From Apostichopus japonicus (lineage: Eukaryota; Echinodermata; Holothuroidea; Aspidochirotida; Stichopodidae): DNA of 64,000 nucleotides. The stretch is taken from NCBI RefSeq assembly GCF_037975245.1, contig NC_092570.1, positions 16,657,418 through 16,721,417 on the forward strand, given 5' to 3'. The number at the start of each line of letters is the position of its first letter. The first letter of the stretch is position 1. This document shows positions 1-52,707 of this stretch, in pieces. Both the position numbers and the translations under genes were made by a program. The notes under the pieces are model-generated. The model was not told the origin of the DNA, did not search any database, and was given only the letters and a program-made list of their open reading frames with translations.

Positions 1-2590
<2,590 letters not shown>

Positions 2591-2911
2591 ATATTATATA
2601 TTTAAATACCATAACCAAATTAAAATGGGAGGTCCACAGGCTCAACCTTAGAAAGCAGAATATGTAGGAATTTATTTCGAATGCAACTTCACGAAAGAAA
2701 TCATAGGTGCAGGAAAAGGCTTCAATCAAGTGGGGTTGGAGGAAGGGGAAGGGTGGCTGTCAAACATCAAGACGTTATGGAGACATGTGAATGTTTTTTT
2801 TAAATAGTGGTTTAGTACTTTAGTAAAATGTCACACGAGAGGGACCTGTCCGATCCCCTCCCCCCTCCAGTCCCCGCCCCTCTCCCGCCTTAGATCAGCC
2901 CCTCAACTTAC

Positions 2912-3230: not shown

Positions 3231-5856
3231 CTGGTACAAATGGTTTGAGAAACTTTAATTAAAAAAACATTTATTTTCATTTTTTTATGATTATTATCAA
3301 GGAACCCTCTCTGGCAGGGAGCATTTTTGCTACAAAATAACATTTTGCACCATTAGGGCCAGAAGTGGAGATACTCCAACCGAAATTCCCTCTCAAAGTA
3401 AGTACAGTTCAAATGTTCATGGCACTTTGGAACGCTAGAAATGCAAATATCAGAGAGATTTAATTCCACGATGAGAAAACAGGTTGCCAGCTTAAAAGTC
3501 AGGTGCGTCGTATTTGGAACCACCTGCAAACCATATGGTACCAAACAAAATTCGTTTTGATCGACGTATCGAATAACTTGACCTTGGCCTTTCATGGAAA
3601 TCTATTTTGGAAGCCTTTATCAGCGATTTCATGTTGAATAATAATGATGATAATAAGAATAGTAATAGCGTGTATATATGTTGTGGTTTGTATACAGAAA
3701 GGCCAACCAACAATACCTTTTAGTCTATGGGGTGTGAAGAAAACAACAACGTTAGTTTTGTTACCACAAATTGGCAAGTAGTGCCTATACAGCAGAATAA
3801 TATTTGCTCACGCTATATAGACTTTATAGATTTTGCAAGAGTGCGAAATAGTTCTAATATATCACTCCTTTTTGATTTTTTGTTTGTTGTGGCAGTTTAA
3901 TTGTTGTGTTTTTTTTTCTTTCTTTCTTTTTAAGAAAAAAAAGACAAAGCGTATTTTGGACCATTTCAGAACAATATGTGCAAAATAAAGCAAAAAAGAA
4001 AAAAAGAATAAACACTGCTATGAGTAAGTAGACTGTGGAGGTCTATACCTACACATGAAAACCATCTGCTGATATGGTTTTGACCATCGAGGTCACCCCC
4101 AATGAAGGGAACGGGAGTAAGTGTAGAGGGGTGGGTGGACAGTGGCGTATTAGCCTACCAGATTAAAGGCACTGAAGACTCCCCCCAAACCGCTTGCGGC
4201 CATCTAAAAAAGTTAACTTTCTGTTGCTTGCAAGTGACGTTTGGTCTTGTCGCTACAAAATGCAGACAGTAATGAAACGTGATACCTTGTTTTCTTTAGC
4301 TGGACCTGAGATGTCCATCGCTGTATCGTTTACACTGTGCTGTGGTCATTGACCGCAGCTGTAGGCTATGCACTGACTGTACACTAGTGTTAATTACCGA
4401 CGGTAGCAAGCTGTGTGTGTATTTTCTGGGATCGATGGTGGTGTCTAACTCTTCTGTTACACCTCATTCGAAACTAGGTCAGGTTACCGGCATTAGACGT
4501 TTCTTTTTGCGCGAGTCTTCACACCCTTTAATGGATCGGAATTACCGGTGCCCCGGTAGGTCCGAGGCAGGTGCTAGTTTTGTCTTAGGCGCCAAAAGCG
4601 TCGTCGCTTAAATAAGGGTCCAGAGACGCCAACCGAGTAACTGAGCCGCCAAGGTAACAATTTGTGCCCACTCCGCCCTAGGGTATATGTAGAGATAGGC
4701 GACAGTACTCTGAAGCTGTAATGTGCGATGCCAGCCTATAGTCTTAACCTCGATTTGACCAAGCTTATTTATGGCAAAAAAATATCCACAATCTATACCG
4801 CTACAAGAGATAAATTTGGTTAAAAACCATCCAATGTTATCCTGCATAATCAGTATCCTGATTTAAGAGGTGTTAAGCGTTTAATCCAATACAAAACATT
4901 TTTATTGTTCCACAAAATTAAACGTACTTATATTTTTATCGGTACATTTTTCAAACCTTTGAAATATATGCTTTATTTCATCATTCTAAGTGCGATTTTG
5001 TAATACCAAAACAGTAAAGGAACTGACGTTTTCTTTTACAAAATGTATTTAAAAAAAAGGGAAATCAGAATAAAAAGAATACTTTACTTAGAAATTAATT
5101 TTTAATATATATTTTGTAGACATTTATAAATCACTGCTGTTAGTCAAGCTTGTACTATTATACTAGTTTTGTTTCAACAATGCCAATACAAATTTTGCAC
5201 AGAACATTCGCATTTCATATGTGTAAAAGATTTTGGTTTCATTTTCCGCTTTCGAAATTATACAACACTTGGATATATGCATGGCGTCCAGAAAATTACA
5301 AAGATATTTATTTGGTCTTGTCAACAAATATTCCTATCTCACATATTTAATTTTGTTTTTGTTTCTCCCAGGCTTTATTATGAAAAAAGGGGGTGAGGGG
5401 AGGGGGAAGAAGGAAACGATAGTTTAACTTACGCGACATATTTGACGTTATTCACAGGCAGATATGTTCCTTTCCTTGGTCACCGTTGTGTATATACAGT
5501 CAGAGTTTAGAGACAACTGCTAACCAATATTACCTGATCCTGCATGAAATGATCTTGTGTAAAGACGGGCATTTGACCGTTAAAGTAACTGAAGCTGAAA
5601 TCAGCAGTCCAAGCACAAAAATTTGTAAATACGTTTACAAAGAAAGAAAGGAAAGGAAATGAAAAGAAAAGAAACCAAGGTATTTCTCACTGAAAAAAAA
5701 ACACAAAAACAACACAAAAACCATAAACCCAGAGACAATACAAGGTGATAATATGAACGGGTCTTTAGAAATTGTAAAAAAAGCGAAAACAACGAAATAC
5801 TTGAAAACCCTTGGGAGTCGCTATATGTTCAGGTTCACTGGATTCCGAGTCTCCTT
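3231..5856. other. Non-coding stretch left of the palindromic element
   Basis: No exon with both credible splice borders and protein-like composition was found. Poly-A/T runs dominate. A lone CAGTGGCG at about 4141 resembles a hAT terminus, but no partner end was found. Confidence 0.5.
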
Positions 5857-5862
5857 CAGTTC
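5857..5862. repeat. Left target-site duplication, CAGTTC
   Basis: CAGTTC directly precedes the first base of the palindromic element and recurs at 19986-19991 directly after its last base. Six-bp duplications are characteristic of Polinton/Maverick integration by their retroviral-type integrase. Confidence 0.9.
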
Positions 5863-6813
5863 AGTAGTATAGTATGCCCTTTTCGCACCCCTTTTGGAGG
5901 CGGAGGCGGAGGCGGGATGAGGTGGAAAATTTGGGGGCGTCCTTCATGTAGGGTTTCGGTGCTGACGCCCCATGAGAGGGGCGAACAATGCACTCATTGC
6001 TTTTATTATAGTTTTTATTTTTAACTTTGCTTTATCCTATTTAAGTATTAAAAAAATAATATAATAACAATAATAATAATAGCTTATTAAACTTCATGAT
6101 TGTTAAAACAAAACAAACGCAAACAAAACAGATGAAACAAAATGTTGGGATATTTTAAACATTTATTTTCTTTTTAAAGAGTACTTTCAAGAAATTATTG
6201 AACATACAAAGTTCCAGTTATGTTTCAGAACAATTATTTTACAATGTGTCTGAAAGTTATACATTAACAGGGAGAAAAATACCAGGCAACAGTGAAATGT
6301 ATTACGCCAATACATTTTCGATTACAAAGTAAATGTGTCTTACAAGTAAAGTACCCGATATAGGTTAAAATCGTTGATATTCTATTGGTTTATACTTCCT
6401 AACCCGTTATCATACTTTATAAAATAGGTTTCCAGATAAAATTCAAAAGAGTACAGGATGAGAAAACATTGGTTAATATTAAAAATCAAGGAGGAAAGTC
6501 ACAAAATGGGGTAAATCATTTAAAATTTAAAACAAAACGTTTTTCAATCAACTATTAATTATAATCACCATACATTAGCCATATAAAAGAGAAAATGTAC
6601 ACTAAGTTCATGTAAAAAATAATAATAAAAAAAAAATAAATAAAAAAAAACAAACTTATAACTGTATATATAGGAGTATTCTTAACATATAGATCGGTGA
6701 ATAAATTTTCTTTGCAGCTATAGTGACACTATATGTAGAGTTATACAAAACACGCACAAGCACACGAGACAGGAGAAAACAGTAAAATATTATTCCATAC
6801 TGCATAATGTTCA

Positions 6814-9800
6814 CTAAATATCAAGATATGTAGTCGTAACACCGTCTTCTTGGACTTTTCTCTTCGGGTAAAAGTAAGTGAAGGCATCCTTTCTGAGCCT
6901 GTATGTATAAACGTGATTGTCTCTCACTCGAAAACCTTTATTTTCTCCAGTTTTTGGTTGTTTTGTTGTAAGAACCTCTTTATATATTTTCTCATCGATG
7001 CTATTTCTTTTTTTATTTACCCCTTTACAACTAAATTTATCTCCCTTGACCCCACCGAAACAGTAATACATTTTGCTGGATAAAGCAACAATACCATCAC
7101 CTTGCCATTCTACTTTAAACAATCCAGGGGTTCGTTTATCAAACATTTTATTTTCTTCAGTATCATCACGTGGAAACCATAAATGTTTTTCTTTGCGAAA
7201 TGTTTCATTCATGTTCGGTTTCAAAATCTCCTCTAGACTGTTACCAGCGATGGAAATATACGCCGAATCAGTGTCCATTTCCACGTACTCCCATTTACTT
7301 ACATCAAAAAATTTACAGAGACAGTCGTAATAAAACTGTAACATGCGTAATTTGGCATACTGGTAGACAAACAAGCCAATTTGAATTGGAAGATCCATCT
7401 TAATACTACTTTTGGCTAGTTCTACTTCGTAACAATCATCAACGATGAAATTCAAATCTCGAAAAGCAGGTGAGTTGACCATTTTGGATGATGAACTAGC
7501 ATCAGCCATTTTAACGTTTGTATGCCTTTCCCTGTTGGTAATAGTTTTACCGTAAGAAGAGTTGCCGATCAATTTCATGGTATCTGCTATAATAGCCTTT
7601 GATGGATCGCGGTCACCTGCTCGCCGAGCATTCGACACAGATTCACCAAAAGTACGAAAGCATGCTTGAGGGGTATATTCAATGACTTGGTAAATACGAG
7701 TAATTATTAAACCATGTTGAAGATACCACTTGATAAGAGGAGTTGCCAAAAGTATTTTGTTACCAAACATGCTACCTATAAGACTTCGTCTAGGTTTTTG
7801 CATTATTTTATTTTCCTCCGCAAATTGTTTCATATGTTCACCGATGTTTTCTCGGGAGATATTTGTGTTTTTGAAAATAGGACACATTTCGGCAAATATA
7901 GGTTTCAACTTATCAGGAACGTGAATGTCGCACTCAACAAACCCAAATAGTTGGTTATCCTGAATAGCACGAATAATTTGATCTTCAGTCAATTTATTCT
8001 TAAACTCTAACGGACGATAAAGCGTACTCAAAAAATGCCTCAAATTTTGGTTATGTTTCTTCATTTCACGAAATTGACATTCCCATACTTCTTCATAGTT
8101 GTATCCTTGGTCTATTACATATTGTCGAATCTCTCTAGTATTTTCAAAGAGTGTCTTCATTGGCACCCCAGTCTTTTCATTTACAGCCTTTCCTCTAGTC
8201 AGATGACAATTATGTCCATGGTAATAACACCCATGAAACTGTAAAACGGTGTTTGTTTCTGCACAGTAACCGTCTAAGGGAATTCGACGCAAGCCTATTC
8301 GCTTCTCAGAACAATTCATTGCGTGACGTATTTTTACGTCACTTACATAGGCCTTCCATTCTAACCACTCGAAACTTATTGGTCTAGTTCGTGAGAGCTT
8401 AAACCCGTTATCTGATTTGCGTCTTGTAAAACTTCCAGTGGGCATATCCTGCATGATCGCCCAAAGATACAGTGCATTAGCATCATAACCGACAATTTTT
8501 TGGCAGACATGACTTGGGTTGTTACGAATAAATGTTTTTCCCTTTTCTTGATGTCTGTTAAAGATGATTGAAGGTCCACCAACTAAACTTTCACGAAACG
8601 TGTAATACAAATCCTTATTTTGTTCATTAATTAATTGAAACGTTGGGTTGTTTGAAACCTTAAATAAATGTTTCATTGTTAGCCCAGGAACTGATATCCC
8701 GTCCTTAAAGGTATCAATGCCCCTTTCTTTGTAGAACTCCGTCATCTTTTCTAATGCTTCAACGAAGGGTTCTACATCACGGTTATTGTACCATACAAGA
8801 AACTCTCGCATGGTTTTCATGTTTTCTCTTTTCCACACATTTTTACAAACTGTATAATCCTCCACCGAGATATTACTTTGTTTTAAATCGCTGTAGAAAG
8901 TTTCATACGGTGGAAGCTGAGGGTAATCAAGTTTCTCTAAAGAAAACCATTCAAATGGGAAGAATCCTTTTGTTTGTGAACATTCAAACGCTTTTAAGAA
9001 AGCATCATAACTAAACCCAGGAGCGAGATAATTTGTAATGTCGAGAAACATAAGATTATCTGTGCGCAGACACATGTAGTTATTGTTTCGCTTAATGACA
9101 CAATTAATAGGATCATTTTTGATGAGATAAGGAAAGAAGAATTCTTTAATCAGGTTAATATCATAACTACCGGAATTGAATCCTAACACGGGAATTTCTG
9201 ATATCCAAGACGTTAACGAATCAAGAAGAATTTTAAGGTGATGTTGTTTGGGTCGGCCCTTACTCTTATATTTATCTTGAATTAAGTACCATTCATCTTG
9301 ATCCTGCTTAATTTTATCTTCTACTGAGCGAATCAAATCACCAAAGGTTTCCTCTAACAATGCCTGACTATTTTCTGCAATTCGGGATAGATACTCAACT
9401 ACATTCTGAATCAAATCATGTGGCCCTTCATTTGAAATAAAACAACGCGGTCGAAGAAACCCAGGAACATTGCTACAAACACTTGCACTTAAAGGAACAT
9501 GTTTAGCCTCCCATGTCAACTTATCAGTTGCTCTAAAACCCTCCACCTGAGATTCAAAGTAACACTCGAAATCGAACACAGCTCTGTATGGATGGTAACG
9601 TAATTTCTCTGGTACAGCGAAACCTTCGTCTTCTAACTGCTCAAAAACGGTTCTCTGTAATTGGAAAACTCCACCAGGGAACTTATGCTTTGAACCTTTA
9701 CCCTCACATTTTGTTTCATGTCTGATAAGAGCCTTGCTCTCTTTCCATAATTTTTGACATTTACGACACATATACGTTTTAGAATACATATTGATATCAG

Positions 9801-11193
9801 AAATATACGAAAAATGATTACCAATTAAGTTAACATACATTGTATCCTTAAATTTCTCCAAGGAACGCCTTACCAATTGTGCTACATGAAGAATACTGGA
9901 GTTAACAAGGAGATCTGCCGTTGAATCACCATTTTCTGTTTCCTGTTTGTTTAATTCATAAACAACGATGTTCACGTTGAAGCTGTCTTCGAACCGAGTG
10001 AGTTCTTTCATCCGTACCCCGTCGAAGCTTCTCGGATCCTGTCCGTGTGAGTAAAGACGATACATTCTATGGGTTTCTTTTTCCAGGGATTTTGGATTAG
10101 ATCCACGAAATAGCGCCAGACATCTGAACAAACACATGTTATCATTGTATGGTTCACCGGTATGAAGATTCTTCTCGAGGGTAACGATAGCTTTGTTGTC
10201 CTTTACATAGTCCGGAACTTCAACTGTAACACATCCGATCGGGTGGTCAAGTACCTTATAGACAAAGTAAGTTACGTTAGTAACTGTTTCTATCACCCAT
10301 TTCGAATTTGGTCTTTGTAACCGTGCATGTTCGAGTAGATCCTGTGCAAGAAGAGCTTCGGTGAAATGTTCAAGTGTCAGCTTGTTTGTGATCTGGAAGG
10401 GTTCTTTGAACAGCTTAGAATTATTCGAAGCGTAGTAATAACGAAGTTCACACGTTTCGACATTACGAAGAAAGAACCCCAATCCAACATTAATCTTGAA
10501 AACATATTTTTGATCATCAAAAATCATATCTGTGTGATGGATCAACTCTTCTCGAGAAGTTTTGCTCAATCGATAGTTGTACACATCCCTTAGTTTATTT
10601 TGCCTGCGAAATTTAGTGCGGATATCGTTCCAATGTTTCTTGTACAACCGCAGAACGTCTTCATGTGAACAATCAGTCCTTTCTGGAATATGGAAAGTAG
10701 AGACAAATTCGTCAACGTTGGCTGGTACTTCGACTAGATCTTCACATGACACAGAGTTAGATACTTCTGATGTTTTCATTCGTTTTAAAGATAGTGATCT
10801 AACTTGATCATCACTTTCAGCTATTCGTTTACCGCTAGTTTCCTGGATTGAAGTATATGTTCCGTTTGCATCTCTCCCCGTTACCGAGGTAGACGGGGTT
10901 TGCGCTGGAGCAATATCCTTTTGTGTAGAAACTGTTCTAGTAACATCTGTTGTTACGGTGTTCTGACCATATCTTGCCTCCGTAGCATGATATTTCAAGT
11001 GGCGAAGGAGGTTATCCTTTCGAGAATATTGTTTAAAACAAATTCTGCATTGTAAGTTTGCCCCTTTGATATGGACAGTTTCAACATGACGTTTTAAAAT
11101 ATCTTGACGAGCGAAAACCTTTCCGCATGTTTTACACTGATATGACATTGTGCTACCTAACATGTAAGCTGACCTTTCTCTTTCAAGTTTCAA
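6814..11193 (-). CDS. Protein-primed-type DNA polymerase B, left copy
   Basis: A 1,459-residue intronless protein that would replicate the element. Domains in order: two C2H2 zinc fingers (C20,C23,H36,H41 and C49,C52,H65,H69); an OTU-like module (D351,C354...H460); a C2HC-type finger (C476,C479,H492,C496); a 3'-5' exonuclease with ExoI D541/E543, ExoII N673/D678 and ExoIII Y802/D806; and the polymerase with motif A around YDANALY (903-909), motif B KLIGNSSYG (1207-1215), motif C DTDS (1307-1310) and a KMY motif near 1374-1376. A nuclease-like insertion (about 944-1060, with LDGYC and FHGCYYHGH) lies between motifs A and B. All signature residues are present, so the protein looks functional. 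M16, directly before the first finger, is an alternative start. It differs from the right copy only at residue 973 (Leu here). The assignment to Polinton-type pPolB is by motifs and element structure; the OTU and nuclease labels are weaker. Confidence 0.92.
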   Translation of the reverse strand: MKLERERSAYMLGSTMSYQCKTCGKVFARQDILKRHVETVHIKGANLQCRICFKQYSRKDNLLRHLKYHATEARYGQNTVTTDVTRTVSTQKDIAPAQTPSTSVTGRDANGTYTSIQETSGKRIAESDDQVRSLSLKRMKTSEVSNSVSCEDLVEVPANVDEFVSTFHIPERTDCSHEDVLRLYKKHWNDIRTKFRRQNKLRDVYNYRLSKTSREELIHHTDMIFDDQKYVFKINVGLGFFLRNVETCELRYYYASNNSKLFKEPFQITNKLTLEHFTEALLAQDLLEHARLQRPNSKWVIETVTNVTYFVYKVLDHPIGCVTVEVPDYVKDNKAIVTLEKNLHTGEPYNDNMCLFRCLALFRGSNPKSLEKETHRMYRLYSHGQDPRSFDGVRMKELTRFEDSFNVNIVVYELNKQETENGDSTADLLVNSSILHVAQLVRRSLEKFKDTMYVNLIGNHFSYISDINMYSKTYMCRKCQKLWKESKALIRHETKCEGKGSKHKFPGGVFQLQRTVFEQLEDEGFAVPEKLRYHPYRAVFDFECYFESQVEGFRATDKLTWEAKHVPLSASVCSNVPGFLRPRCFISNEGPHDLIQNVVEYLSRIAENSQALLEETFGDLIRSVEDKIKQDQDEWYLIQDKYKSKGRPKQHHLKILLDSLTSWISEIPVLGFNSGSYDINLIKEFFFPYLIKNDPINCVIKRNNNYMCLRTDNLMFLDITNYLAPGFSYDAFLKAFECSQTKGFFPFEWFSLEKLDYPQLPPYETFYSDLKQSNISVEDYTVCKNVWKRENMKTMREFLVWYNNRDVEPFVEALEKMTEFYKERGIDTFKDGISVPGLTMKHLFKVSNNPTFQLINEQNKDLYYTFRESLVGGPSIIFNRHQEKGKTFIRNNPSHVCQKIVGYDANALYLWAIMQDMPTGSFTRRKSDNGFKLSRTRPISFEWLEWKAYVSDVKIRHAMNCSEKRIGLRRIPLDGYCAETNTVLQFHGCYYHGHNCHLTRGKAVNEKTGVPMKTLFENTREIRQYVIDQGYNYEEVWECQFREMKKHNQNLRHFLSTLYRPLEFKNKLTEDQIIRAIQDNQLFGFVECDIHVPDKLKPIFAEMCPIFKNTNISRENIGEHMKQFAEENKIMQKPRRSLIGSMFGNKILLATPLIKWYLQHGLIITRIYQVIEYTPQACFRTFGESVSNARRAGDRDPSKAIIADTMKLIGNSSYGKTITNRERHTNVKMADASSSSKMVNSPAFRDLNFIVDDCYEVELAKSSIKMDLPIQIGLFVYQYAKLRMLQFYYDCLCKFFDVSKWEYVEMDTDSAYISIAGNSLEEILKPNMNETFRKEKHLWFPRDDTEENKMFDKRTPGLFKVEWQGDGIVALSSKMYYCFGGVKGDKFSCKGVNKKRNSIDEKIYKEVLTTKQPKTGENKGFRVRDNHVYTYRLRKDAFTYFYPKRKVQEDGVTTTYLDI

Positions 11194-12473
11194 ATAGTAA
11201 ATGAGAAACCTTGGCTCAATACAAAGACTATAAGAGCTTGAATCAAGCGTAACGGTTCATTGAGCAGCAGTGACGGTTACGTAACACCCTCCTTGATAAA
11301 CAAGTCTGAACATGTTAACTTCTAAGGGGGTCGGTGATTCAGAGTACCCTCATAAATTTCACAAGTTGGGGAGACTATAAATACTCACAATGCCGATGTA
11401 AGGAACAACGTATTAATCTCTTTATATATATTGTTTCCTTCGTCTGCATTATTCAACAAGGTAACGAAATAAGTAGATTAAGCTAGAGAGCGTTTAAAAC
11501 ATTTCGAAATAAGAAAAACTTCATTTGAGGTTGTAGAAAATATATGAAATAACATTTTCGGACACAAACACCGCTACAGTTAGTATAGTATATATATATA
11601 TCACTTCGTAAGGTTCCCCACATAACTGTCGTTTTATCACAAGAAGTGATTTCGACAAAGACAATACAGTAACTGAGGTTGTTGGACCATAAAACGTTAA
11701 CAATGATTTTATTTCTGTCCCCACGATAGACCCATGTGTCTTACAACAGTGTGTTATCAACTTCTACACATATACTTACCTGTAACCAAAGTCACCTAAT
11801 AAGTTTGTAGTAAAGTATCAGGTATCGATATACTTTAAACTCCACAATCTATATTCCTTTTTAATTTTATAGGAATTCTCGTCCCAACGTTAAAAGAAAA
11901 GAAATAACCTTATCTACCACAATTTTACAATCGTTGTACTTAAAAGTAGGTCTACTTATTATCATTCTGTAAGCTAACTTACACAAAACAAGTACGATAG
12001 CCTGCCGCGCCGTGCTAGTAACGCTGAATACCGAAGGAGTTGTTTCTTTACTAGAGAGATTATATCCCAGCAAGGGTACACAATAGATGACTATTGATTG
12101 AAGGCCTTAATCTACTGACTGGTTGTATTGTTCATCTGTCCATGATACAGTACACCTACAGTACTAGGAAGGGTGAAGGTTTAACTTTTCTTGCTGCCGA
12201 GACAACTGAGTAGGAAAACTCAGGCTAAGTTATCAGACCTAAAATTCAAGAAAATATGTTAACGGATAAAACGAACTTATATATAAATATATATATATAG
12301 TCATTCGAAAGTAAACTAAATTTTACATGCATAATCGGGAAACGGAGGACTGATTCACCGCACCATAATAAAACATATACTATAGTTGTAGCGGAGAGGT
12401 AAATAATATCCAAAAACAACAGGTTTTCTGGTGGTTATGGTAAGACTGCTACATCCTTATCATTCTTGATGAA
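11194..12473. other. Upstream region of the left polymerase gene
   Basis: About 1.3 kb without a supported gene, mirrored at 13375-14654. A TATA-like TATTTATAG lies about 190 bp before the polymerase start (right-arm copy near 14464-14472), so this segment probably holds the outward-firing promoter. A short (TA)n tract also occurs at 12280-12300. Confidence 0.4.
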
Positions 12474-12755
12474 TTAATGAGTGAAAAAGCAAAGATTGAT
12501 GACGTAATGGGATTTTGCAGAGAATAGAATACTGTAAATTGCACTTGTTTCTTGTGATGAGCCTGTGAACACAAACGAGTGACTCAAAGAGTAAATGAGC
12601 ACACTGTGAACAAAGTAGAGAGCCAGTGCACATATTGTGAACACGTTTATTGAGTAGAATGAGAACGTACTCACTGCTTTAAGGGAATAAACAATACATG
12701 AAGATAGACTCGTACAAATCAAACCAGGCCCACATTTAGGCTGAATTTGATCCAT
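12474..12755 (-). CDS. Small hydrophobic ORF, left copy
   Basis: A 93-residue ATG-initiated frame near the palindrome centre, transcribed in the same direction as the left polymerase. The middle (about residues 18-60) is rich in hydrophobic and Ser residues and could form one or two membrane segments. The start follows MDQIQPKCG. I recognise no family. Its only support is an intact frame in both arms, which is weak evidence because the arms are nearly identical. It could be a chance frame. Confidence 0.25.
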   Translation of the reverse strand: MDQIQPKCGPGLICTSLSSCIVYSLKAVSTFSFYSINVFTICALALYFVHSVLIYSLSHSFVFTGSSQETSAIYSILFSAKSHYVINLCFFTH

Positions 12756-12786
12756 TTGAAAATGCCTTCAGGTGGGGGTAGGTCTA

Positions 12787-12806
12787 ACCGGTATAAATTT
12801 ACCGGT
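12787..12806. other. Short perfect-armed palindrome near the centre
   Basis: ACCGGTATAAATTTACCGGT has 7-bp perfect arms and is followed by ATCAATTGAT (12811-12820). Both recur in mirror image at 13042-13061 and 13029-13038. Dyads clustered by a T-run near the inner ends of the arms could bind a protein or be hairpin-prone. Their role is inference. Confidence 0.6.
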
Positions 12807-12910
12807 AGACAATCAATTGATGATTTTTTTTTTTCGTGGTAAGCAATGTATCATTTCCATTCCACGGGGTAACGATGAACTTTGTTGCGCTCGAGCTCTA
12901 GTGACAGCCC

Positions 12911-12937
12911 TTGCTTACCACGAAAAAAAAAGAAAAA
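12911..12937. other. Palindrome spacer with a copied arm fragment
   Basis: The 27-bp non-palindromic centre reads TTGCTTACCACG, nine A, G, five A. Its first 21 bases repeat 13002-13022 of the right arm in direct orientation and are inverted relative to 12826-12846 of the left arm. The spacer is therefore not random filler but a third copy of an internal arm segment, pointing to template switching or a snap-back primer when the palindrome formed. Confidence 0.85.
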
Positions 12938-13092
12938 GGGCTGTCACTAGAGCTCGAGCGCAACAAAGTTCATCGTTACCCCGTGGAATGGAAATGATAC
13001 ATTGCTTACCACGAAAAAAAAAAATCATCAATTGATTGTCTACCGGTAAATTTATACCGGTTAGACCTACCCCCACCTGAAGGCATTTTCAA

Positions 13093-13374
13093 ATGGATCA
13101 AATTCAGCCTAAATGTGGGCCTGGTTTGATTTGTACGAGTCTATCTTCATGTATTGTTTATTCCCTTAAAGCAGTGAGTACGTTCTCATTCTACTCAATA
13201 AACGTGTTCACAATATGTGCACTGGCTCTCTACTTTGTTCACAGTGTGCTCATTTACTCTTTGAGTCACTCGTTTGTGTTCACAGGCTCATCACAAGAAA
13301 CAAGTGCAATTTACAGTATTCTATTCTCTGCAAAATCCCATTACGTCATCAATCTTTGCTTTTTCACTCATTAA
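13093..13374 (+). CDS. Small hydrophobic ORF, right copy
   Basis: Mirror copy of the 93-residue frame at 12474-12755, with an identical translation. It lies between the palindrome centre and the right polymerase, on the same strand. Function unknown; it may not be a gene. Confidence 0.25.
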   Translation: MDQIQPKCGPGLICTSLSSCIVYSLKAVSTFSFYSINVFTICALALYFVHSVLIYSLSHSFVFTGSSQETSAIYSILFSAKSHYVINLCFFTH

Positions 13375-14654
13375 TTCATCAAGAATGATAAGGATGTAGC
13401 AGTCTTACCATAACCACCAGAAAACCTGTTGTTTTTGGATATTATTTACCTCTCCGCTACAACTATAGTATATGTTTTATTATGGTGCGGTGAATCAGTC
13501 CTCCGTTTCCCGATTATGCATGTAAAATTTAGTTTACTTTCGAATGACTATATATATATATTTATATATAAGTTCGTTTTATCCGTTAACATATTTTCTT
13601 GAATTTTAGGTCTGATAACTTAGCCTGAGTTTTCCTACTCAGTTGTCTCGGCAGCAAGAAAAGTTAAACCTTCACCCTTCCTAGTACTGTAGGTGTACTG
13701 TATCATGGACAGATGAACAATACAACCAGTCAGTAGATTAAGGCCTTCAATCAATAGTCATCTATTGTGTACCCTTGCTGGGATATAATCTCTCTAGTAA
13801 AGAAACAACTCCTTCGGTATTCAGCGTTACTAGCACGGCGCGGCAGGCTATCGTACTTGTTTTGTGTAAGTTAGCTTACAGAATGATAATAAGTAGACCT
13901 ACTTTTAAGTACAACGATTGTAAAATTGTGGTAGATAAGGTTATTTCTTTTCTTTTAACGTTGGGACGAGAATTCCTATAAAATTAAAAAGGAATATAGA
14001 TTGTGGAGTTTAAAGTATATCGATACCTGATACTTTACTACAAACTTATTAGGTGACTTTGGTTACAGGTAAGTATATGTGTAGAAGTTGATAACACACT
14101 GTTGTAAGACACATGGGTCTATCGTGGGGACAGAAATAAAATCATTGTTAACGTTTTATGGTCCAACAACCTCAGTTACTGTATTGTCTTTGTCGAAATC
14201 ACTTCTTGTGATAAAACGACAGTTATGTGGGGAACCTTACGAAGTGATATATATATATACTATACTAACTGTAGCGGTGTTTGTGTCCGAAAATGTTATT
14301 TCATATATTTTCTACAACCTCAAATGAAGTTTTTCTTATTTCGAAATGTTTTAAACGCTCTCTAGCTTAATCTACTTATTTCGTTACCTTGTTGAATAAT
14401 GCAGACGAAGGAAACAATATATATAAAGAGATTAATACGTTGTTCCTTACATCGGCATTGTGAGTATTTATAGTCTCCCCAACTTGTGAAATTTATGAGG
14501 GTACTCTGAATCACCGACCCCCTTAGAAGTTAACATGTTCAGACTTGTTTATCAAGGAGGGTGTTACGTAACCGTCACTGCTGCTCAATGAACCGTTACG
14601 CTTGATTCAAGCTCTTATAGTCTTTGTATTGAGCCAAGGTTTCTCATTTACTAT

Positions 14655-17600
14655 TTGAAACTTGAAAGAGAAAGGTCAGCTTACATGTTAGGTAGCACAA
14701 TGTCATATCAGTGTAAAACATGCGGAAAGGTTTTCGCTCGTCAAGATATTTTAAAACGTCATGTTGAAACTGTCCATATCAAAGGGGCAAACTTACAATG
14801 CAGAATTTGTTTTAAACAATATTCTCGAAAGGATAACCTCCTTCGCCACTTGAAATATCATGCTACGGAGGCAAGATATGGTCAGAACACCGTAACAACA
14901 GATGTTACTAGAACAGTTTCTACACAAAAGGATATTGCTCCAGCGCAAACCCCGTCTACCTCGGTAACGGGGAGAGATGCAAACGGAACATATACTTCAA
15001 TCCAGGAAACTAGCGGTAAACGAATAGCTGAAAGTGATGATCAAGTTAGATCACTATCTTTAAAACGAATGAAAACATCAGAAGTATCTAACTCTGTGTC
15101 ATGTGAAGATCTAGTCGAAGTACCAGCCAACGTTGACGAATTTGTCTCTACTTTCCATATTCCAGAAAGGACTGATTGTTCACATGAAGACGTTCTGCGG
15201 TTGTACAAGAAACATTGGAACGATATCCGCACTAAATTTCGCAGGCAAAATAAACTAAGGGATGTGTACAACTATCGATTGAGCAAAACTTCTCGAGAAG
15301 AGTTGATCCATCACACAGATATGATTTTTGATGATCAAAAATATGTTTTCAAGATTAATGTTGGATTGGGGTTCTTTCTTCGTAATGTCGAAACGTGTGA
15401 ACTTCGTTATTACTACGCTTCGAATAATTCTAAGCTGTTCAAAGAACCCTTCCAGATCACAAACAAGCTGACACTTGAACATTTCACCGAAGCTCTTCTT
15501 GCACAGGATCTACTCGAACATGCACGGTTACAAAGACCAAATTCGAAATGGGTGATAGAAACAGTTACTAACGTAACTTACTTTGTCTATAAGGTACTTG
15601 ACCACCCGATCGGATGTGTTACAGTTGAAGTTCCGGACTATGTAAAGGACAACAAAGCTATCGTTACCCTCGAGAAGAATCTTCATACCGGTGAACCATA
15701 CAATGATAACATGTGTTTGTTCAGATGTCTGGCGCTATTTCGTGGATCTAATCCAAAATCCCTGGAAAAAGAAACCCATAGAATGTATCGTCTTTACTCA
15801 CACGGACAGGATCCGAGAAGCTTCGACGGGGTACGGATGAAAGAACTCACTCGGTTCGAAGACAGCTTCAACGTGAACATCGTTGTTTATGAATTAAACA
15901 AACAGGAAACAGAAAATGGTGATTCAACGGCAGATCTCCTTGTTAACTCCAGTATTCTTCATGTAGCACAATTGGTAAGGCGTTCCTTGGAGAAATTTAA
16001 GGATACAATGTATGTTAACTTAATTGGTAATCATTTTTCGTATATTTCTGATATCAATATGTATTCTAAAACGTATATGTGTCGTAAATGTCAAAAATTA
16101 TGGAAAGAGAGCAAGGCTCTTATCAGACATGAAACAAAATGTGAGGGTAAAGGTTCAAAGCATAAGTTCCCTGGTGGAGTTTTCCAATTACAGAGAACCG
16201 TTTTTGAGCAGTTAGAAGACGAAGGTTTCGCTGTACCAGAGAAATTACGTTACCATCCATACAGAGCTGTGTTCGATTTCGAGTGTTACTTTGAATCTCA
16301 GGTGGAGGGTTTTAGAGCAACTGATAAGTTGACATGGGAGGCTAAACATGTTCCTTTAAGTGCAAGTGTTTGTAGCAATGTTCCTGGGTTTCTTCGACCG
16401 CGTTGTTTTATTTCAAATGAAGGGCCACATGATTTGATTCAGAATGTAGTTGAGTATCTATCCCGAATTGCAGAAAATAGTCAGGCATTGTTAGAGGAAA
16501 CCTTTGGTGATTTGATTCGCTCAGTAGAAGATAAAATTAAGCAGGATCAAGATGAATGGTACTTAATTCAAGATAAATATAAGAGTAAGGGCCGACCCAA
16601 ACAACATCACCTTAAAATTCTTCTTGATTCGTTAACGTCTTGGATATCAGAAATTCCCGTGTTAGGATTCAATTCCGGTAGTTATGATATTAACCTGATT
16701 AAAGAATTCTTCTTTCCTTATCTCATCAAAAATGATCCTATTAATTGTGTCATTAAGCGAAACAATAACTACATGTGTCTGCGCACAGATAATCTTATGT
16801 TTCTCGACATTACAAATTATCTCGCTCCTGGGTTTAGTTATGATGCTTTCTTAAAAGCGTTTGAATGTTCACAAACAAAAGGATTCTTCCCATTTGAATG
16901 GTTTTCTTTAGAGAAACTTGATTACCCTCAGCTTCCACCGTATGAAACTTTCTACAGCGATTTAAAACAAAGTAATATCTCGGTGGAGGATTATACAGTT
17001 TGTAAAAATGTGTGGAAAAGAGAAAACATGAAAACCATGCGAGAGTTTCTTGTATGGTACAATAACCGTGATGTAGAACCCTTCGTTGAAGCATTAGAAA
17101 AGATGACGGAGTTCTACAAAGAAAGGGGCATTGATACCTTTAAGGACGGGATATCAGTTCCTGGGCTAACAATGAAACATTTATTTAAGGTTTCAAACAA
17201 CCCAACGTTTCAATTAATTAATGAACAAAATAAGGATTTGTATTACACGTTTCGTGAAAGTTTAGTTGGTGGACCTTCAATCATCTTTAACAGACATCAA
17301 GAAAAGGGAAAAACATTTATTCGTAACAACCCAAGTCATGTCTGCCAAAAAATTGTCGGTTATGATGCTAATGCACTGTATCTTTGGGCGATCATGCAGG
17401 ATATGCCCACTGGAAGTTTTACAAGACGCAAATCAGATAACGGGTTTAAGCTCTCACGAACTAGACCAATAAGTTTCGAGTGGTTAGAATGGAAGGCCTA
17501 TGTAAGTGACGTAAAAATACGTCACGCAATGAATTGTTCTGAGAAGCGAATAGGCTTGCGTCGAATTCCCGTAGACGGTTACTGTGCAGAAACAAACACC

Positions 17601-19034
17601 GTTTTACAGTTTCATGGGTGTTATTACCATGGACATAATTGTCATCTGACTAGAGGAAAGGCTGTAAATGAAAAGACTGGGGTGCCAATGAAGACACTCT
17701 TTGAAAATACTAGAGAGATTCGACAATATGTAATAGACCAAGGATACAACTATGAAGAAGTATGGGAATGTCAATTTCGTGAAATGAAGAAACATAACCA
17801 AAATTTGAGGCATTTTTTGAGTACGCTTTATCGTCCGTTAGAGTTTAAGAATAAATTGACTGAAGATCAAATTATTCGTGCTATTCAGGATAACCAACTA
17901 TTTGGGTTTGTTGAGTGCGACATTCACGTTCCTGATAAGTTGAAACCTATATTTGCCGAAATGTGTCCTATTTTCAAAAACACAAATATCTCCCGAGAAA
18001 ACATCGGTGAACATATGAAACAATTTGCGGAGGAAAATAAAATAATGCAAAAACCTAGACGAAGTCTTATAGGTAGCATGTTTGGTAACAAAATACTTTT
18101 GGCAACTCCTCTTATCAAGTGGTATCTTCAACATGGTTTAATAATTACTCGTATTTACCAAGTCATTGAATATACCCCTCAAGCATGCTTTCGTACTTTT
18201 GGTGAATCTGTGTCGAATGCTCGGCGAGCAGGTGACCGCGATCCATCAAAGGCTATTATAGCAGATACCATGAAATTGATCGGCAACTCTTCTTACGGTA
18301 AAACTATTACCAACAGGGAAAGGCATACAAACGTTAAAATGGCTGATGCTAGTTCATCATCCAAAATGGTCAACTCACCTGCTTTTCGAGATTTGAATTT
18401 CATCGTTGATGATTGTTACGAAGTAGAACTAGCCAAAAGTAGTATTAAGATGGATCTTCCAATTCAAATTGGCTTGTTTGTCTACCAGTATGCCAAATTA
18501 CGCATGTTACAGTTTTATTACGACTGTCTCTGTAAATTTTTTGATGTAAGTAAATGGGAGTACGTGGAAATGGACACTGATTCGGCGTATATTTCCATCG
18601 CTGGTAACAGTCTAGAGGAGATTTTGAAACCGAACATGAATGAAACATTTCGCAAAGAAAAACATTTATGGTTTCCACGTGATGATACTGAAGAAAATAA
18701 AATGTTTGATAAACGAACCCCTGGATTGTTTAAAGTAGAATGGCAAGGTGATGGTATTGTTGCTTTATCCAGCAAAATGTATTACTGTTTCGGTGGGGTC
18801 AAGGGAGATAAATTTAGTTGTAAAGGGGTAAATAAAAAAAGAAATAGCATCGATGAGAAAATATATAAAGAGGTTCTTACAACAAAACAACCAAAAACTG
18901 GAGAAAATAAAGGTTTTCGAGTGAGAGACAATCACGTTTATACATACAGGCTCAGAAAGGATGCCTTCACTTACTTTTACCCGAAGAGAAAAGTCCAAGA
19001 AGACGGTGTTACGACTACATATCTTGATATTTAG
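14655..19034 (+). CDS. Protein-primed-type DNA polymerase B, right copy
   Basis: Mirror of the left polymerase gene and also 1,459 residues. It has the same zinc fingers, OTU-like module, exonuclease motifs (D541/E543, N673/D678, Y802/D806) and polymerase motifs (A near 903-909, B near 1207-1215, C at 1307-1310). The single difference is Val instead of Leu at residue 973 (GTA at 17571-17573), directly before the Asp of the nuclease-like insertion. Starts of the two copies lie 3.46 kb apart and the genes diverge. Both frames are intact over 4.4 kb, which means the insertion is young, the arms are being homogenised, or the genes are under selection. Confidence 0.92.
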   Translation: MKLERERSAYMLGSTMSYQCKTCGKVFARQDILKRHVETVHIKGANLQCRICFKQYSRKDNLLRHLKYHATEARYGQNTVTTDVTRTVSTQKDIAPAQTPSTSVTGRDANGTYTSIQETSGKRIAESDDQVRSLSLKRMKTSEVSNSVSCEDLVEVPANVDEFVSTFHIPERTDCSHEDVLRLYKKHWNDIRTKFRRQNKLRDVYNYRLSKTSREELIHHTDMIFDDQKYVFKINVGLGFFLRNVETCELRYYYASNNSKLFKEPFQITNKLTLEHFTEALLAQDLLEHARLQRPNSKWVIETVTNVTYFVYKVLDHPIGCVTVEVPDYVKDNKAIVTLEKNLHTGEPYNDNMCLFRCLALFRGSNPKSLEKETHRMYRLYSHGQDPRSFDGVRMKELTRFEDSFNVNIVVYELNKQETENGDSTADLLVNSSILHVAQLVRRSLEKFKDTMYVNLIGNHFSYISDINMYSKTYMCRKCQKLWKESKALIRHETKCEGKGSKHKFPGGVFQLQRTVFEQLEDEGFAVPEKLRYHPYRAVFDFECYFESQVEGFRATDKLTWEAKHVPLSASVCSNVPGFLRPRCFISNEGPHDLIQNVVEYLSRIAENSQALLEETFGDLIRSVEDKIKQDQDEWYLIQDKYKSKGRPKQHHLKILLDSLTSWISEIPVLGFNSGSYDINLIKEFFFPYLIKNDPINCVIKRNNNYMCLRTDNLMFLDITNYLAPGFSYDAFLKAFECSQTKGFFPFEWFSLEKLDYPQLPPYETFYSDLKQSNISVEDYTVCKNVWKRENMKTMREFLVWYNNRDVEPFVEALEKMTEFYKERGIDTFKDGISVPGLTMKHLFKVSNNPTFQLINEQNKDLYYTFRESLVGGPSIIFNRHQEKGKTFIRNNPSHVCQKIVGYDANALYLWAIMQDMPTGSFTRRKSDNGFKLSRTRPISFEWLEWKAYVSDVKIRHAMNCSEKRIGLRRIPVDGYCAETNTVLQFHGCYYHGHNCHLTRGKAVNEKTGVPMKTLFENTREIRQYVIDQGYNYEEVWECQFREMKKHNQNLRHFLSTLYRPLEFKNKLTEDQIIRAIQDNQLFGFVECDIHVPDKLKPIFAEMCPIFKNTNISRENIGEHMKQFAEENKIMQKPRRSLIGSMFGNKILLATPLIKWYLQHGLIITRIYQVIEYTPQACFRTFGESVSNARRAGDRDPSKAIIADTMKLIGNSSYGKTITNRERHTNVKMADASSSSKMVNSPAFRDLNFIVDDCYEVELAKSSIKMDLPIQIGLFVYQYAKLRMLQFYYDCLCKFFDVSKWEYVEMDTDSAYISIAGNSLEEILKPNMNETFRKEKHLWFPRDDTEENKMFDKRTPGLFKVEWQGDGIVALSSKMYYCFGGVKGDKFSCKGVNKKRNSIDEKIYKEVLTTKQPKTGENKGFRVRDNHVYTYRLRKDAFTYFYPKRKVQEDGVTTTYLDI

Positions 19035-19985
19035 TGAACATTATGCAGTATGGAATAATATTTTACTGTTTTCTCCTGTCTCGTGTGCTTGTGCGTGTTT
19101 TGTATAACTCTACATATAGTGTCACTATAGCTGCAAAGAAAATTTATTCACCGATCTATATGTTAAGAATACTCCTATATATACAGTTATAAGTTTTTTT
19201 TTTTTTATTTATTTTTTTTTTATTATTATTTTTTACATGAACTTAGTGTACATTTTCTCTTTTATATGGCTAATGTATGGTGATTATAATTAATAGTTGA
19301 TTGAAAAACGTTTTGTTTTAAATTTTAAATGATTTACCCCATTTTGTGACTTTCCTCCTTGATTTTTAATATTAACCAATGTTTTCTCATCCTGTACTCT
19401 TTTGAATTTTATCTGGAAACCTATTTTATAAAGTATGATAACGGGTTAGGAAGTATAAACCAATAGAATATCAACGATTTTAACCTATATCGGGTACTTT
19501 ACTTGTAAGACACATTTACTTTGTAATCGAAAATGTATTGGCGTAATACATTTCACTGTTGCCTGGTATTTTTCTCCCTGTTAATGTATAACTTTCAGAC
19601 ACATTGTAAAATAATTGTTCTGAAACATAACTGGAACTTTGTATGTTCAATAATTTCTTGAAAGTACTCTTTAAAAAGAAAATAAATGTTTAAAATATCC
19701 CAACATTTTGTTTCATCTGTTTTGTTTGCGTTTGTTTTGTTTTAACAATCATGAAGTTTAATAAGCTATTATTATTATTGTTATTATATTATTTTTTTAA
19801 TACTTAAATAGGATAAAGCAAAGTTAAAAATAAAAACTATAATAAAAGCAATGAGTGCATTGTTCGCCCCTCTCATGGGGCGTCAGCACCGAAACCCTAC
19901 ATGAAGGACGCCCCCAAATTTTCCACCTCATCCCGCCTCCGCCTCCGCCTCCAAAAGGGGTGCGAAAAGGGCATACTATACTACT

Positions 19986-19991
19986 CAGTTC
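19986..19991. repeat. Right target-site duplication, CAGTTC
   Basis: Identical to 5857-5862 and directly abuts the last base of the element. Confidence 0.9.
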
Positions 19992-22182: not shown

Positions 22183-22601
22183 CTGTATAGTCATGGTTTA
22201 TTTGGTTCTAATTCCATCAAAACTTTACATGAAGAAGATATATGAGGAGAATCTACACACACAAAAAAAGGAGAAAAAAAACAGGCCTATACTGTCATAC
22301 GTCCCGAATAGTAACCAAAAGGTTATTTACACCTATCTAGGGTAACCTACCTTTTCAACATTACCTTGTAGAATTTGTTATTTCGGTATCTTTCTTAGCA
22401 TTCAAACTATATAGACAAAAAACCAAACAAAGAGCACAGATCTATTGAACTATATTACTGCACTTTCCAGTTATACAACGGCCGCATTCAAACTTGATTA
22501 TGTGTAGTAAGCATTTCCTCGGGAATGATCACACTTGGGTGCCTTTTATAAACTAAAACTTAAATTGAACTATTTACCATCAGTGGTGTATAGCCAGAGG
22601 C

Positions 22602-26025
<3,424 letters not shown>

Positions 26026-44200: not shown

Positions 44201-44622
44201 CTTTTAGCGAACATCTACCTTATGACCTTTCACCCTTCGGGCAGTGTTGGCAACCGTTTTATTTGTTTCGTATGGTTATTATTTATAAAATCTACAAAGA
44301 AAAACTTTCAATGTATTTCGTATAACATAAATAAACACATTATAATATTTCAGAGACTACAATAATAGTATGGGAGCAATTATTTTATATAAATTGAACG
44401 AACCGACTGCATAACAAAATAATGGCTACCATTAATGACGTCAACGATGAACCTCGTAAAGGTAAACAATTGAATACTATCGTAGTCACTGAGTGGGCTG
44501 GTAATAGGCCTAGCTGTATGTTAAGCTCAGACAAGACTACTTCGATTTAAACGAAGAGCGATCGCTAAACCGCTTGGTTTTGTCATTGTACTGGCATTTC
44601 GTTGATCGAATTGCCCGGGGAA
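44201..44622. promoter_or_regulatory. Divergent PCCB-MSL2 promoter region
   Basis: Only 422 bp separate the two start codons, so both 5' UTRs and promoters must lie here or overlap. It contains a perfect CRE palindrome TGACGTCA at 44436-44443, AATAATGGCTACC (44419-44430; YY1-like) and a GCGATCGC palindrome near 44560. An upstream ATG at 44422 opens a 42-codon frame ending at 44550, which may be a uORF for MSL2. Factor binding is inferred from motif only. Confidence 0.65.
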
Positions 44623-45837
44623 ATGAACGCGATAACTCTTTACACATCAACTTGTCGTTATATATTACAGGCAGACCATGAAAACCCGGAAAGTTGGGCG
44701 GAATTGTACCGATTGCTGCCATATTTGCGACAGGCATTGGCGTGTTGTGTGTGTGCTAACCTGTTGTCAGAACCATGGGGACCTACGAACTCGATTTGTC
44801 AGCATCAAGTCTGTAGAACATGTATTGGAGGGAAAATGCGTCTTAAACCGTCGTGCAGTTGGTGTAAAGATTATAGCCAATTTACCGAGAGTAAGGAGTT
44901 ACGAATTGTTCTTGCATGTTATAAAAAGTTGTGTGAATATGTGTCCGCCACGCCCATTGCTCAAAATATTGAGAGTAGTGCAGATAACGGGGGGCCAAAT
45001 ACTACGATAGAGATTTTACGAGAAGGTATCGCAATTACAGATAGTTATGAGGGAAGCGATTTATCCAAGGAATCAAGTGCTTTGCAGTTTCTGCTACCGA
45101 CACTTTACACACATTTTAATCGGAAAGATGGCAGGCCCAAGGATTCCGGGGAGACGACCACTAATGCCAATGGTATGGCTGAAAGGGCCAACCCGGAAGT
45201 AGGGATTTTCCCATCTTCGTCTTTTCAATTTGTCCAGGGACCAAGCCATTCCAATTTACCATTAACGAACGGTTCATGTTACATAAAAAAGCGTAGAGCT
45301 AGTGAAGCGGGCAGCTCGGACGCAGCCCTCACCTTCAGAGGGTCTAGAAACAAAATGAAGCGAAAACGCAGATCTATGAAACATAAAAAGAAGAAGCACA
45401 AGAGCTCCCGTAGACATCGTGAAGAGAAAAGAAAAAAGTCGAAACGATCGCGAGAGGGAAATGCGGACGGCAGTAAGAAAGACAAACAGTCTGATGTCAA
45501 ACGGTTAGTTGTATCAGGGCATAGAGCAAAGATGTTAAAGGAGGGGAAAGCTGTTCCTGAACTAACGTTCTGTAGGTGTGGAACAAATGGTACTTCTCCT
45601 GGTACATTCCCATGTATAAGTCAAAGATGTCCTTGTTTTGTGTTAGAGAAATCCTGTGCAAATTGCAAGTGTAGAAGCTGCCATAACCCAATCTCTAAAC
45701 AAGAGCCATCAGCCAATGGTACCGAGGAAACAAAAGTACAGAACGATGCAGAGAAAGTCGAAGAAGTGAAACACAGAGACACGAATGCCAGCGACAGCGA
45801 TTCGTTTGTAGATGTAACAGGGACAACCAACAGCTGA
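44623..45837 (+). CDS. MSL2: MSL2-like E3 ubiquitin ligase
   Basis: A 404-residue single-exon frame. The ATG at 44623 is preferred because MNAITLYTST aligns with the vertebrate MSL2 start; an in-frame extension upstream lacks an ATG. The N-terminal RING has the spaced metal ligands C41/C44, C59, H61, C64/C67 and C78/C81, followed by CKDYSQF. Residues about 245-280 are extremely Lys/Arg-rich. The MSL2-type CXC domain (about 316-357, beginning FCRCGTN and ending CRSCHNP) binds DNA in known homologues. MSL2 works in the male-specific-lethal chromatin complex and ubiquitinates histone H2B in mammals. It is shorter than human MSL2 (577 aa), mainly in the linker. Divergent neighbour of PCCB. Confidence 0.93.
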   Translation: MNAITLYTSTCRYILQADHENPESWAELYRLLPYLRQALACCVCANLLSEPWGPTNSICQHQVCRTCIGGKMRLKPSCSWCKDYSQFTESKELRIVLACYKKLCEYVSATPIAQNIESSADNGGPNTTIEILREGIAITDSYEGSDLSKESSALQFLLPTLYTHFNRKDGRPKDSGETTTNANGMAERANPEVGIFPSSSFQFVQGPSHSNLPLTNGSCYIKKRRASEAGSSDAALTFRGSRNKMKRKRRSMKHKKKKHKSSRRHREEKRKKSKRSREGNADGSKKDKQSDVKRLVVSGHRAKMLKEGKAVPELTFCRCGTNGTSPGTFPCISQRCPCFVLEKSCANCKCRSCHNPISKQEPSANGTEETKVQNDAEKVEEVKHRDTNASDSDSFVDVTGTTNS

Positions 45838-52484: not shown

Positions 52485-52504
52485 AAACGTTTGTGCAGCT
52501 GTTT

Positions 52505-52707
<203 letters not shown>

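What the first reader, a model, noticed from the sequence alone, without database searches (positions are those of the whole stretch)
5857..19991. A whole-element palindrome integrated like a Polinton: a snap-back, two-polymerase Maverick
Seen: 7,048-bp inverted arms, 27-bp spacer, 5'-AG...CT-3' ends and a perfect CAGTTC duplication on both sides. Each arm holds only a protein-primed-type polymerase B. Known: Polintons make 6-bp duplications and encode integrase, ATPase, protease and capsids. Defective adenovirus genomes, also protein-primed, can be inverted duplications of one end. Inference: a replicating linear Polinton folded back, duplicated its polymerase end into a molecule with two identical termini, and an integrase supplied in trans inserted it. 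This would be a defective-interfering-like class of eukaryotic mobile element.
Basis: partly seen in the sequence, partly recalled or inferred. Interest (0 to 1): 0.95.

Follow-up and report, generated by a model that had tools for sequence, protein, structure and literature searches.

The report
Snap-back palindromic Polinton, polymerase genes only
A 14-kb piece of an animal genome is a virus-like mobile element (a Polinton) that folded back and copied itself into a near-perfect mirror image with two polymerase genes and no integrase or capsid genes, and then inserted into the chromosome; a second copy with the same fold-back scar suggests such "defective" Polintons can persist as a lineage.

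Summary
In detail: 5863-19985 is a whole-element palindrome (7,050-bp arms, 2 mismatches, 23-bp spacer) with AGTAGT...ACTACT ends and a perfect CAGTTC duplication. Each arm carries one open 1,459-aa family-B polymerase and no match to 12 other Polinton proteins. The same genome holds complete 16-kb Polintons; one ("Q") shares the ten terminal bases and a 48%-identical polymerase. The palindrome's innermost 180 bp is a nearly identical piece of the polymerase gene of another Polinton ("P"). After it comes a fold-back scar: TTGCT primed on AGCAA 64 nt upstream. A second palindrome on another contig carries exactly that scar with its original loop. The window's centre is that scar folded back once more. 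So this is a chimeric copy-back Polinton, made once and found at two places, whose arms evolved in concert in both. That it formed as extrachromosomal linear DNA, and that integrase came in trans, are inferences. The second locus is rearranged (host flank also inverted, no duplication, possibly misassembled), so only the window copy is a clean insertion. No read data were available and the window's empty-site search never ran. New variant of a known kind, high interest.

The parts
5857..5862 (.). left target-site duplication CAGTTC
19986..19991 (.). right target-site duplication CAGTTC
5863..12912 (+). left arm of the palindrome (7,050 bp); begins AGTAGTATAG
12936..19985 (-). right arm, reverse complement of the left arm with 2 mismatches; ends CTATACTACT
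6814..11193 (-). family-B DNA polymerase ORF, 1,459 aa: two N-terminal C2H2 fingers, exonuclease and polymerase motifs (motif names recalled), Vsr-like insertion; C-terminal end faces the element's terminus
14655..19034 (+). second copy of the same polymerase ORF in the right arm
12736..12912 (+). piece of the polymerase gene of a different Polinton family (P): with the next 3 bases, 180 bp at 97% (1 substitution plus a 4-bp poly-T length difference) to C23 and C21; C3 and C2 match at 97% too
12936..13112 (-). mirror copy of the Polinton-P piece in the right arm
   Evidence: mirror coordinates
12842..12846 (+). AGCAA, partner on which the nascent TTGCT end (12911-12915) primed in the founding fold-back
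12911..12931 (+). founding snap-back scar TTGCT|TACCACGAAAAAAAAA: native Polinton P reads TTGCT|ATAAAAGAC; the C14 palindrome has the same scar
12913..12935 (+). 23-bp unpaired spacer; its right border (GAAA|AAGGG on CCCTT) is the second fold-back

Best explanation
The locus is an inserted, recombinant copy-back (snap-back) derivative of a Polinton. Inferred: on a Polinton molecule replicating from its protein-primed terminus, the nascent strand ran through the polymerase module of family A. Shown in sequence: the arm then continues for about 180 bp of the polymerase gene of a second Polinton (P), after which TTGCT was primed on AGCAA 64 nt upstream and the arm was copied back. The result was a molecule with two identical termini and two polymerase genes. 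Shown: the window's centre contains that scar and then a second, tighter fold-back on CCCTT that copied the old loop into both arms. Shown: the element sits between two perfect CAGTTC copies, as in a Polinton integration. Inferred: because the element has no integrase or capsid gene, another Polinton supplied integrase (and perhaps packaging) in trans while the element supplied its own polymerase. Inferred: repeated snap-back from a single arm keeps the arms identical.
For: Palindrome, 6-bp duplication, ends. Polymerase only. Polinton Q, C17:18277571-18294075: integrase (rve 2.1e-14), A32-type ATPase (1.8e-6), weak adenain-type protease match (0.015, below cut-off), polymerase 48% identical, AGTAGTATAG ends, TSD TACATT; its capsid ORF gave no Pfam match and is named by recall. 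Polinton P on C23, TSD ATTGAT. P piece and scar. Same scar in the C14 palindrome with the single-copy 64-nt loop. Concerted arms: 16 of 3,754 gap-free columns separate both C14 arms from both window arms, against 2 window-private and 7 C14-private changes; with the C7 fragment as outgroup, 10 can be placed, 4 window-derived and 6 C14-derived. Polymerase open in both window arms and the C14 right arm; 10 synonymous and 12 nonsynonymous differences on 892 and 3,485 sites, Fisher p 0.007. Elements on C15 and C1 with the same outer ends, 6-bp duplications, no ORF of 150 aa in the pieces read and no match to the 13 proteins suggest that gene-poor elements with these ends were mobilised.
Against: No direct parent of family A was found: copies at 98% or more are the two palindromes and one fragment on C7 (5 of 42 matches; 32 of 539 candidates were scored), so a missed parent is possible. 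The C14 locus has no duplication; its host flank is an inverted copy too (1,981 bp, 100%), and a 97-98% direct copy with the empty site lies next to it, so it may be a chromosomal inverted duplication or a haplotype-joining misassembly. Non-coding divergence between the two palindromes (9 of 2,528 columns) is no higher than nonsynonymous divergence and lower than synonymous (p 0.015), so selection on the polymerase is not proven. In Q and P the polymerase N-terminus lies about 2.4 kb from a terminus, whereas here the C-terminus faces the terminus; four older family-A copies share that order, so the palindrome is not simply 'the polymerase end' of a Q- or P-type genome.
Confidence: 0.64

Rival explanations
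1. The palindrome was first made inside a chromosome: a break or stalled fork in an integrated element folded back and duplicated the arm together with host DNA, as C14 looks today, and Polinton integrase later moved the now two-ended element to the window site.
For: At C14 the host flank is itself inverted and 100% identical over 1,981 bp, and the scar is shared.
Against: The inverted host DNA at C14 could equally follow from an already palindromic insertion (exchange between inverted arms). The junction with P fits co-replicating elements better. At C14 one flank has lost the 297-bp segment X and the other carries an extra 869-bp terminal fragment, so the locus is secondary.
Confidence: 0.2
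2. Arms are kept identical by ordinary chromosomal gene conversion between palindrome arms after insertion, not by renewed snap-back replication; the element is a dead one-off made and moved once or twice. (This concerns upkeep and can hold together with the best explanation of origin.)
For: Palindrome arms on chromosomes are known to convert (recalled). Non-coding and nonsynonymous divergence are about equal.
Against: The window centre shows that a second fold-back did happen after the first. dN/dS is about 0.3.
Confidence: 0.35
3. Assembly artefact: a single-arm element was assembled as a mirror image.
For: Palindromic chimeras occur in long-read data (recalled), and C14 has an artefact-like neighbourhood.
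Against: A mirrored read would return to the left flank, but the window has two different flanks with a matching 6-bp duplication. The arms differ at two bases. The two centres differ but share one scar.
Confidence: 0.07
4. It is an ordinary non-autonomous Polinton relative with unusually long terminal inverted repeats that grew gradually, like the C15 and C1 elements.
For: C15 and C1 elements have inverted arms of about 2-3 kb around a centre that is not repeated.
Against: Here the repeat covers all but 23 bp, carries an open polymerase in each arm and has a fold-back scar at its centre; the pieces of C15 and C1 have no ORF of 150 aa or more.
Confidence: 0.05

Closest known systems
Polinton/Maverick (elements P and Q of the same genome; vertebrate Mavericks, PMC8097293, passages read)
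   Same: (AGT)2...(ACT)2 ends, 6-bp target-site duplication, family-B polymerase of a clade found in Q, roughly similar size (14.1 against 16.3 and 16.5 kb here)
   Different: no integrase, ATPase, protease or capsid genes found; the two halves are mirror images; two polymerase genes; chimeric centre; shorter than the about 17 kb with 10% variation given for vertebrate Mavericks
AAV snapback genomes (PMC8235507, abstract and passages read)
   Same: self-complementary subgenomic molecule holding one terminus and one moiety, with symmetric and asymmetric (looped) forms; helper-dependent
   Different: parvovirus DNA known from virions; here a protein-primed-type element fixed in a chromosome and carrying open polymerase genes
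Adenovirus defective genomes with inverted duplication of one end (recalled; the listings showed none)
   Same: protein-primed linear DNA, fold-back near one end giving two identical termini
   Different: known as particle populations, not as inserted elements with a target-site duplication
C15 and C1 long-TIR elements of this genome without long ORFs
   Same: up to the outer 457 bp of the arm at 84-91%, AGTAGTATAG ends, 6-bp duplications CACCTT (C15) and TAAGAT (C1b)
   Different: non-repeated centre, no long ORF, next 290 bp inverted relative to the palindrome

Membership tests
Polinton/Maverick | 6-bp target-site duplication | tested here: met
   CAGTTC; 8-bp reading set aside by family ends
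Polinton/Maverick | (AGT)2 / (ACT)2 end motif and terminal inverted repeats | tested here: met
   motif as described in PMC8097293
Polinton/Maverick | family-B DNA polymerase of Polinton type | tested here: met
   PF03175 3.4e-8 for a piece; 48% identical to the polymerase of Polinton Q
Polinton/Maverick | polymerase is protein-primed (terminal protein) | not testable with these tools
   by relationship only
Polinton/Maverick | retroviral-type integrase gene | tested here: not met
   tblastn with the Q integrase and a 224-aa piece of the P integrase, no match in the arm
Polinton/Maverick | packaging ATPase, adenain-type protease, capsid genes | tested here: not met
   (capsid ORFs of Q and P named by recall). 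Filed therefore as a Polinton derivative, not as an autonomous Polinton
Snap-back / copy-back defective genome | two identical termini from one end, mirror-image halves | tested here: met
Snap-back / copy-back defective genome | fold-back junction at microhomology | tested here: met
   TTGCT on AGCAA, 5 nt, 64-nt loop, against native Polinton P
Snap-back / copy-back defective genome | needs a helper and interferes with it | not testable with these tools
   candidate helpers exist in the genome; no functional data

The most novel reading that the evidence does not exclude
A self-renewing palindromic Polinton lineage: it keeps only its polymerase, uses integrase (and perhaps capsids) of complete Polintons in the same genome, and rebuilds itself from a single arm by snap-back at each round. 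Both arms therefore evolve as one gene, and the centre shifts by successive fold-backs.
Probability: 0.4. Interest if true: 0.88.

Novelty: new variant of a known kind. Interest (0 to 1): 0.74.

Why it matters
Polintons are thought to replicate as protein-primed linear molecules like adenoviruses, but direct traces of that replication are hard to find in genomes. This locus records a junction between two Polinton families and two successive fold-backs, fixed by an integration with a clean target-site duplication. It makes extrachromosomal Polinton replication, trans-mobilisation by a helper, and the existence of satellite-like "defective" Polintons directly testable in one genome that still holds candidate helpers with open genes. 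My searches of the held library (30 of 44 papers listed, 1 of 1, 20 of 23, 7 of 7, 15 of 30) listed no paper that, by title and start of abstract, describes a whole-element palindromic Polinton. The library lacks most subscription journals.

Tried and rejected
Pfam on the whole polymerase missed PF03175, as did two other pieces; one piece found it. The first codon comparison was out of frame by one codon and is discarded; one search replaces it. I first took the C14 palindrome as a clean second insertion. Searches showed inverted host flanks and an adjacent copy with the empty site, so that claim is withdrawn. I considered an 8-bp duplication (TCAGTTCA) and set it aside. I considered that the arm is the polymerase end of a Q- or P-type genome; the gene orientation contradicts it. 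A 'left terminus plus deletion of the rest' reading is possible but is not needed, since older family-A copies already have that order. An empty-site search for the window and a genome-wide count of AGTAGTATAGTATGCC ends were tried repeatedly and never answered.
Full report
Observation. The palindrome is real in the sequence: arms 5863-12912 and 12936-19985, 7,050 bp, two mismatches, 23-bp spacer, CAGTTC on both sides. Each arm has one long ORF of 1,459 aa and no other ORF of 100 aa or more from a start codon. The flanks are not mirror images of each other. The genome is an unnamed assembly of 671.6 Mb in 35 contigs, with the window at C10:16657418-16721417. An MSL2 homologue in the window (PF16685, PF16682) marks it as an animal (family knowledge).

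The polymerase. It has two N-terminal C2H2 fingers, a DNA_pol_B_2 match for one piece (PF03175, 3.4e-8) and a Vsr-endonuclease-like stretch (1odg, E 0.0039). Aligned with the polymerase of Polinton Q it keeps the exonuclease, DANALY, KLIGNSSYG and DTDS motifs (motif names recalled). Apart from decayed fragments of the same family at 77-89%, its nearest relatives are 48-53% identical. One of them, on C17, lies in a complete Polinton, Q (18277571-18294075, 16.5 kb).

Polintons in the same genome. Q has an integrase (rve 2.1e-14 and a chromodomain), an A32-type ATPase (1.8e-6), a weak adenain-type protease match (0.015, below the curated cut-off), AGTAGTATAG ends, a 577-bp inverted repeat and the duplication TACATT. 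Its polymerase is open over 1,135 aa; the N-terminal finger part lies in separate reading frames upstream, so it may be broken or spliced. Its capsid-type ORFs had no Pfam match (major capsid ORF) and are named by resemblance that I recall. P, on C23 (4373593-4389877), has AGTAGTAGTA ends and the duplication ATTGAT. In the pieces read, its ORFs are open: integrase C-terminal part with chromodomain (3.4e-10), an ATPase (Adeno_IVa2 1.1e-6), a weak adenain-type protease match (0.0067, below cut-off) and the polymerase (4.7e-22 and 2.7e-23); the start of the integrase was not examined. A 3.2-kb piece from C21 has the same polymerase reading frame; C3 and C2 are known only by the 180-bp match. Possible helpers are therefore present. 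Of 13 Q and P proteins searched, only the Q polymerase matches the arm.

Family ends. Of 15 further ends of this repeat family read, 11 begin AGTAGTATAG; C1a/C1b and C15/C17a are duplicated regions, so they are not all independent. C15 and C1b have their own 6-bp duplications, CACCTT and TAAGAT; in C1a, a duplicate of C1b, the two sides no longer match. Their pieces contain no ORF of 150 aa or more and no match to the 13 proteins. Gene-poor elements with these ends seem to have been mobilised in this genome.

The centre. The last 180 bp of the arm (12736-12915) match P's polymerase gene at 97%: one substitution and a 4-base difference in a poly-T run. Relatives of the preceding arm sequence diverge just before this piece (12721 and 12726), so it is a template-switch or recombination junction between two Polinton families, with nine bases (12727-12735) explained by neither side. 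Native P continues GACAGCCCTTGCT|ATAAAAGAC; the palindrome on C14 reads GACAGCCCTTGCT|TACCACGAAAAAAATCATC. The new sequence is the exact complement of what lies upstream from AGCAA, with a 64-nt loop between. That is the signature of a 3' end folding back on five matching bases. The window has the same scar and then folds back again: GCTTACCACGAAAAAAAAAGAAA is the spacer, and AAGGGCTGTC starts the copy of the old loop. The C14 type could also arise from the window type by deletion between the two copies of TTGCTTACCACG, but both carry the founding scar in either case.

The second locus. C14:8585818-8596668 is a palindrome of the same family whose left arm lacks arm positions 3764-6921 and whose right arm runs from position 3 to the loop with an open polymerase. 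It is followed by an extra 869-bp terminal fragment. It has no target-site duplication. Its host flank is also inverted: 1,981 bp at 100%. A direct copy of the neighbourhood at 97-98%, without the element, lies about 10 kb to the right, with no N in the pieces. This is either a chromosomal inverted duplication or two haplotypes joined through the palindrome. I therefore do not count it as a clean insertion. A third, partial copy on C7 (arm 2-2080, 98%) has one terminus only.

Concerted arms. Over 3,754 gap-free columns, 16 differences separate both C14 arms from both window arms, against 2 private to one window arm and 7 private to one C14 arm. With C7 as outgroup, 10 can be placed: 4 are window-derived and 6 C14-derived. 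Since the founding scar is shared, the arms must have been homogenised afterwards in both lineages. Snap-back from one arm does that automatically; chromosomal gene conversion can too. The polymerase differs at 10 synonymous and 12 nonsynonymous positions between window and C14 (892 and 3,485 sites; p 0.007), with one in-frame codon absent in C14. Non-coding sequence changed no faster than nonsynonymous sites (9 of 2,528 columns) and more slowly than synonymous sites (p 0.015), so I treat selection as suggested, not shown.

Orientation. In Q and P the polymerase's N-terminal end lies about 2.4 kb from a terminus. In the palindrome its C-terminal end faces the terminus, about 950 bp away. Four older, decayed family-A copies (C14:25.2 Mb, C17:19.3 Mb, C1:18.8 Mb and C14:5.79 Mb, the last without its first 43 bases) show the same order, so it predates the palindrome. 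What the full parent looked like is unknown.

Mechanism and limits. Shown: ends, duplication, gene content, chimeric centre, two fold-backs, shared scar. Inferred: extrachromosomal protein-primed replication as the setting, integrase in trans, packaging, interference. Repeated AGT ends suit the jump-back of protein-primed replication (PMC8097293, passages read). The same paper gives about 17 kb with 10% variation for vertebrate Mavericks; the palindrome's 14.1 kb lies below that.

Literature. By search listing only, (30 of 44, 1 of 1, 20 of 23, 7 of 7 and 15 of 30 papers listed) showed no whole-element palindromic Polinton. Passages were read of PMC6431247, PMC8235507, PMC8097293 and PMC12721341. 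Adenovirus inverted-duplication genomes are recalled, not read.

Noticed in passing
G000 C23:4373593-4389877 (L042, L040, L038, L041); 97% matches to a 180-bp piece on C21, C3, C2: Polinton family P with open integrase-chromodomain (part read), capsid-type (by recall), protease, ATPase and polymerase ORFs; the C21 piece has the same open polymerase frame, so P looks recently active.
   Followed up: partly
G000 C17:18277571-18294075 (L048, L046, L047): Complete Polinton Q, TSD TACATT; C2H2 fingers lie just upstream of its polymerase in separate reading frames.
   Followed up: partly
G000 C15:11391252-11402674, C1:2887909-2895996, C1:2818973-2826845: Elements without long ORFs that share the palindrome's outer 457 bp, with inverted arms of about 2-3 kb and (C15, C1b) 6-bp duplications; the next 290 bp are inverted relative to the palindrome.
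   Followed up: partly
window 12546-12622: A 77-bp stretch of the arm matches arrays with about 142-bp spacing that sit in inverted pairs at many places in the genome (C16, C19, C7, C3, C2, C21, C22), perhaps ends of another element family.
   Followed up: no
window 12727-12735: Nine bases (GGCCCACAT) at the junction of the arm with the P piece match neither side's relatives.
   Followed up: partly
G000 C14:8596667-8597532: Extra copy of the terminal 869 bp joined head-to-tail to the palindrome's right end, with a 6-base filler before the host DNA.
   Followed up: partly
window 44569-45837: MSL2-type ORF (RING and CXC domains), a conserved animal gene.
   Followed up: yes
window 2379-2678, 22532-22781, 52500-52705: Long AT-dinucleotide arrays.
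   Followed up: no
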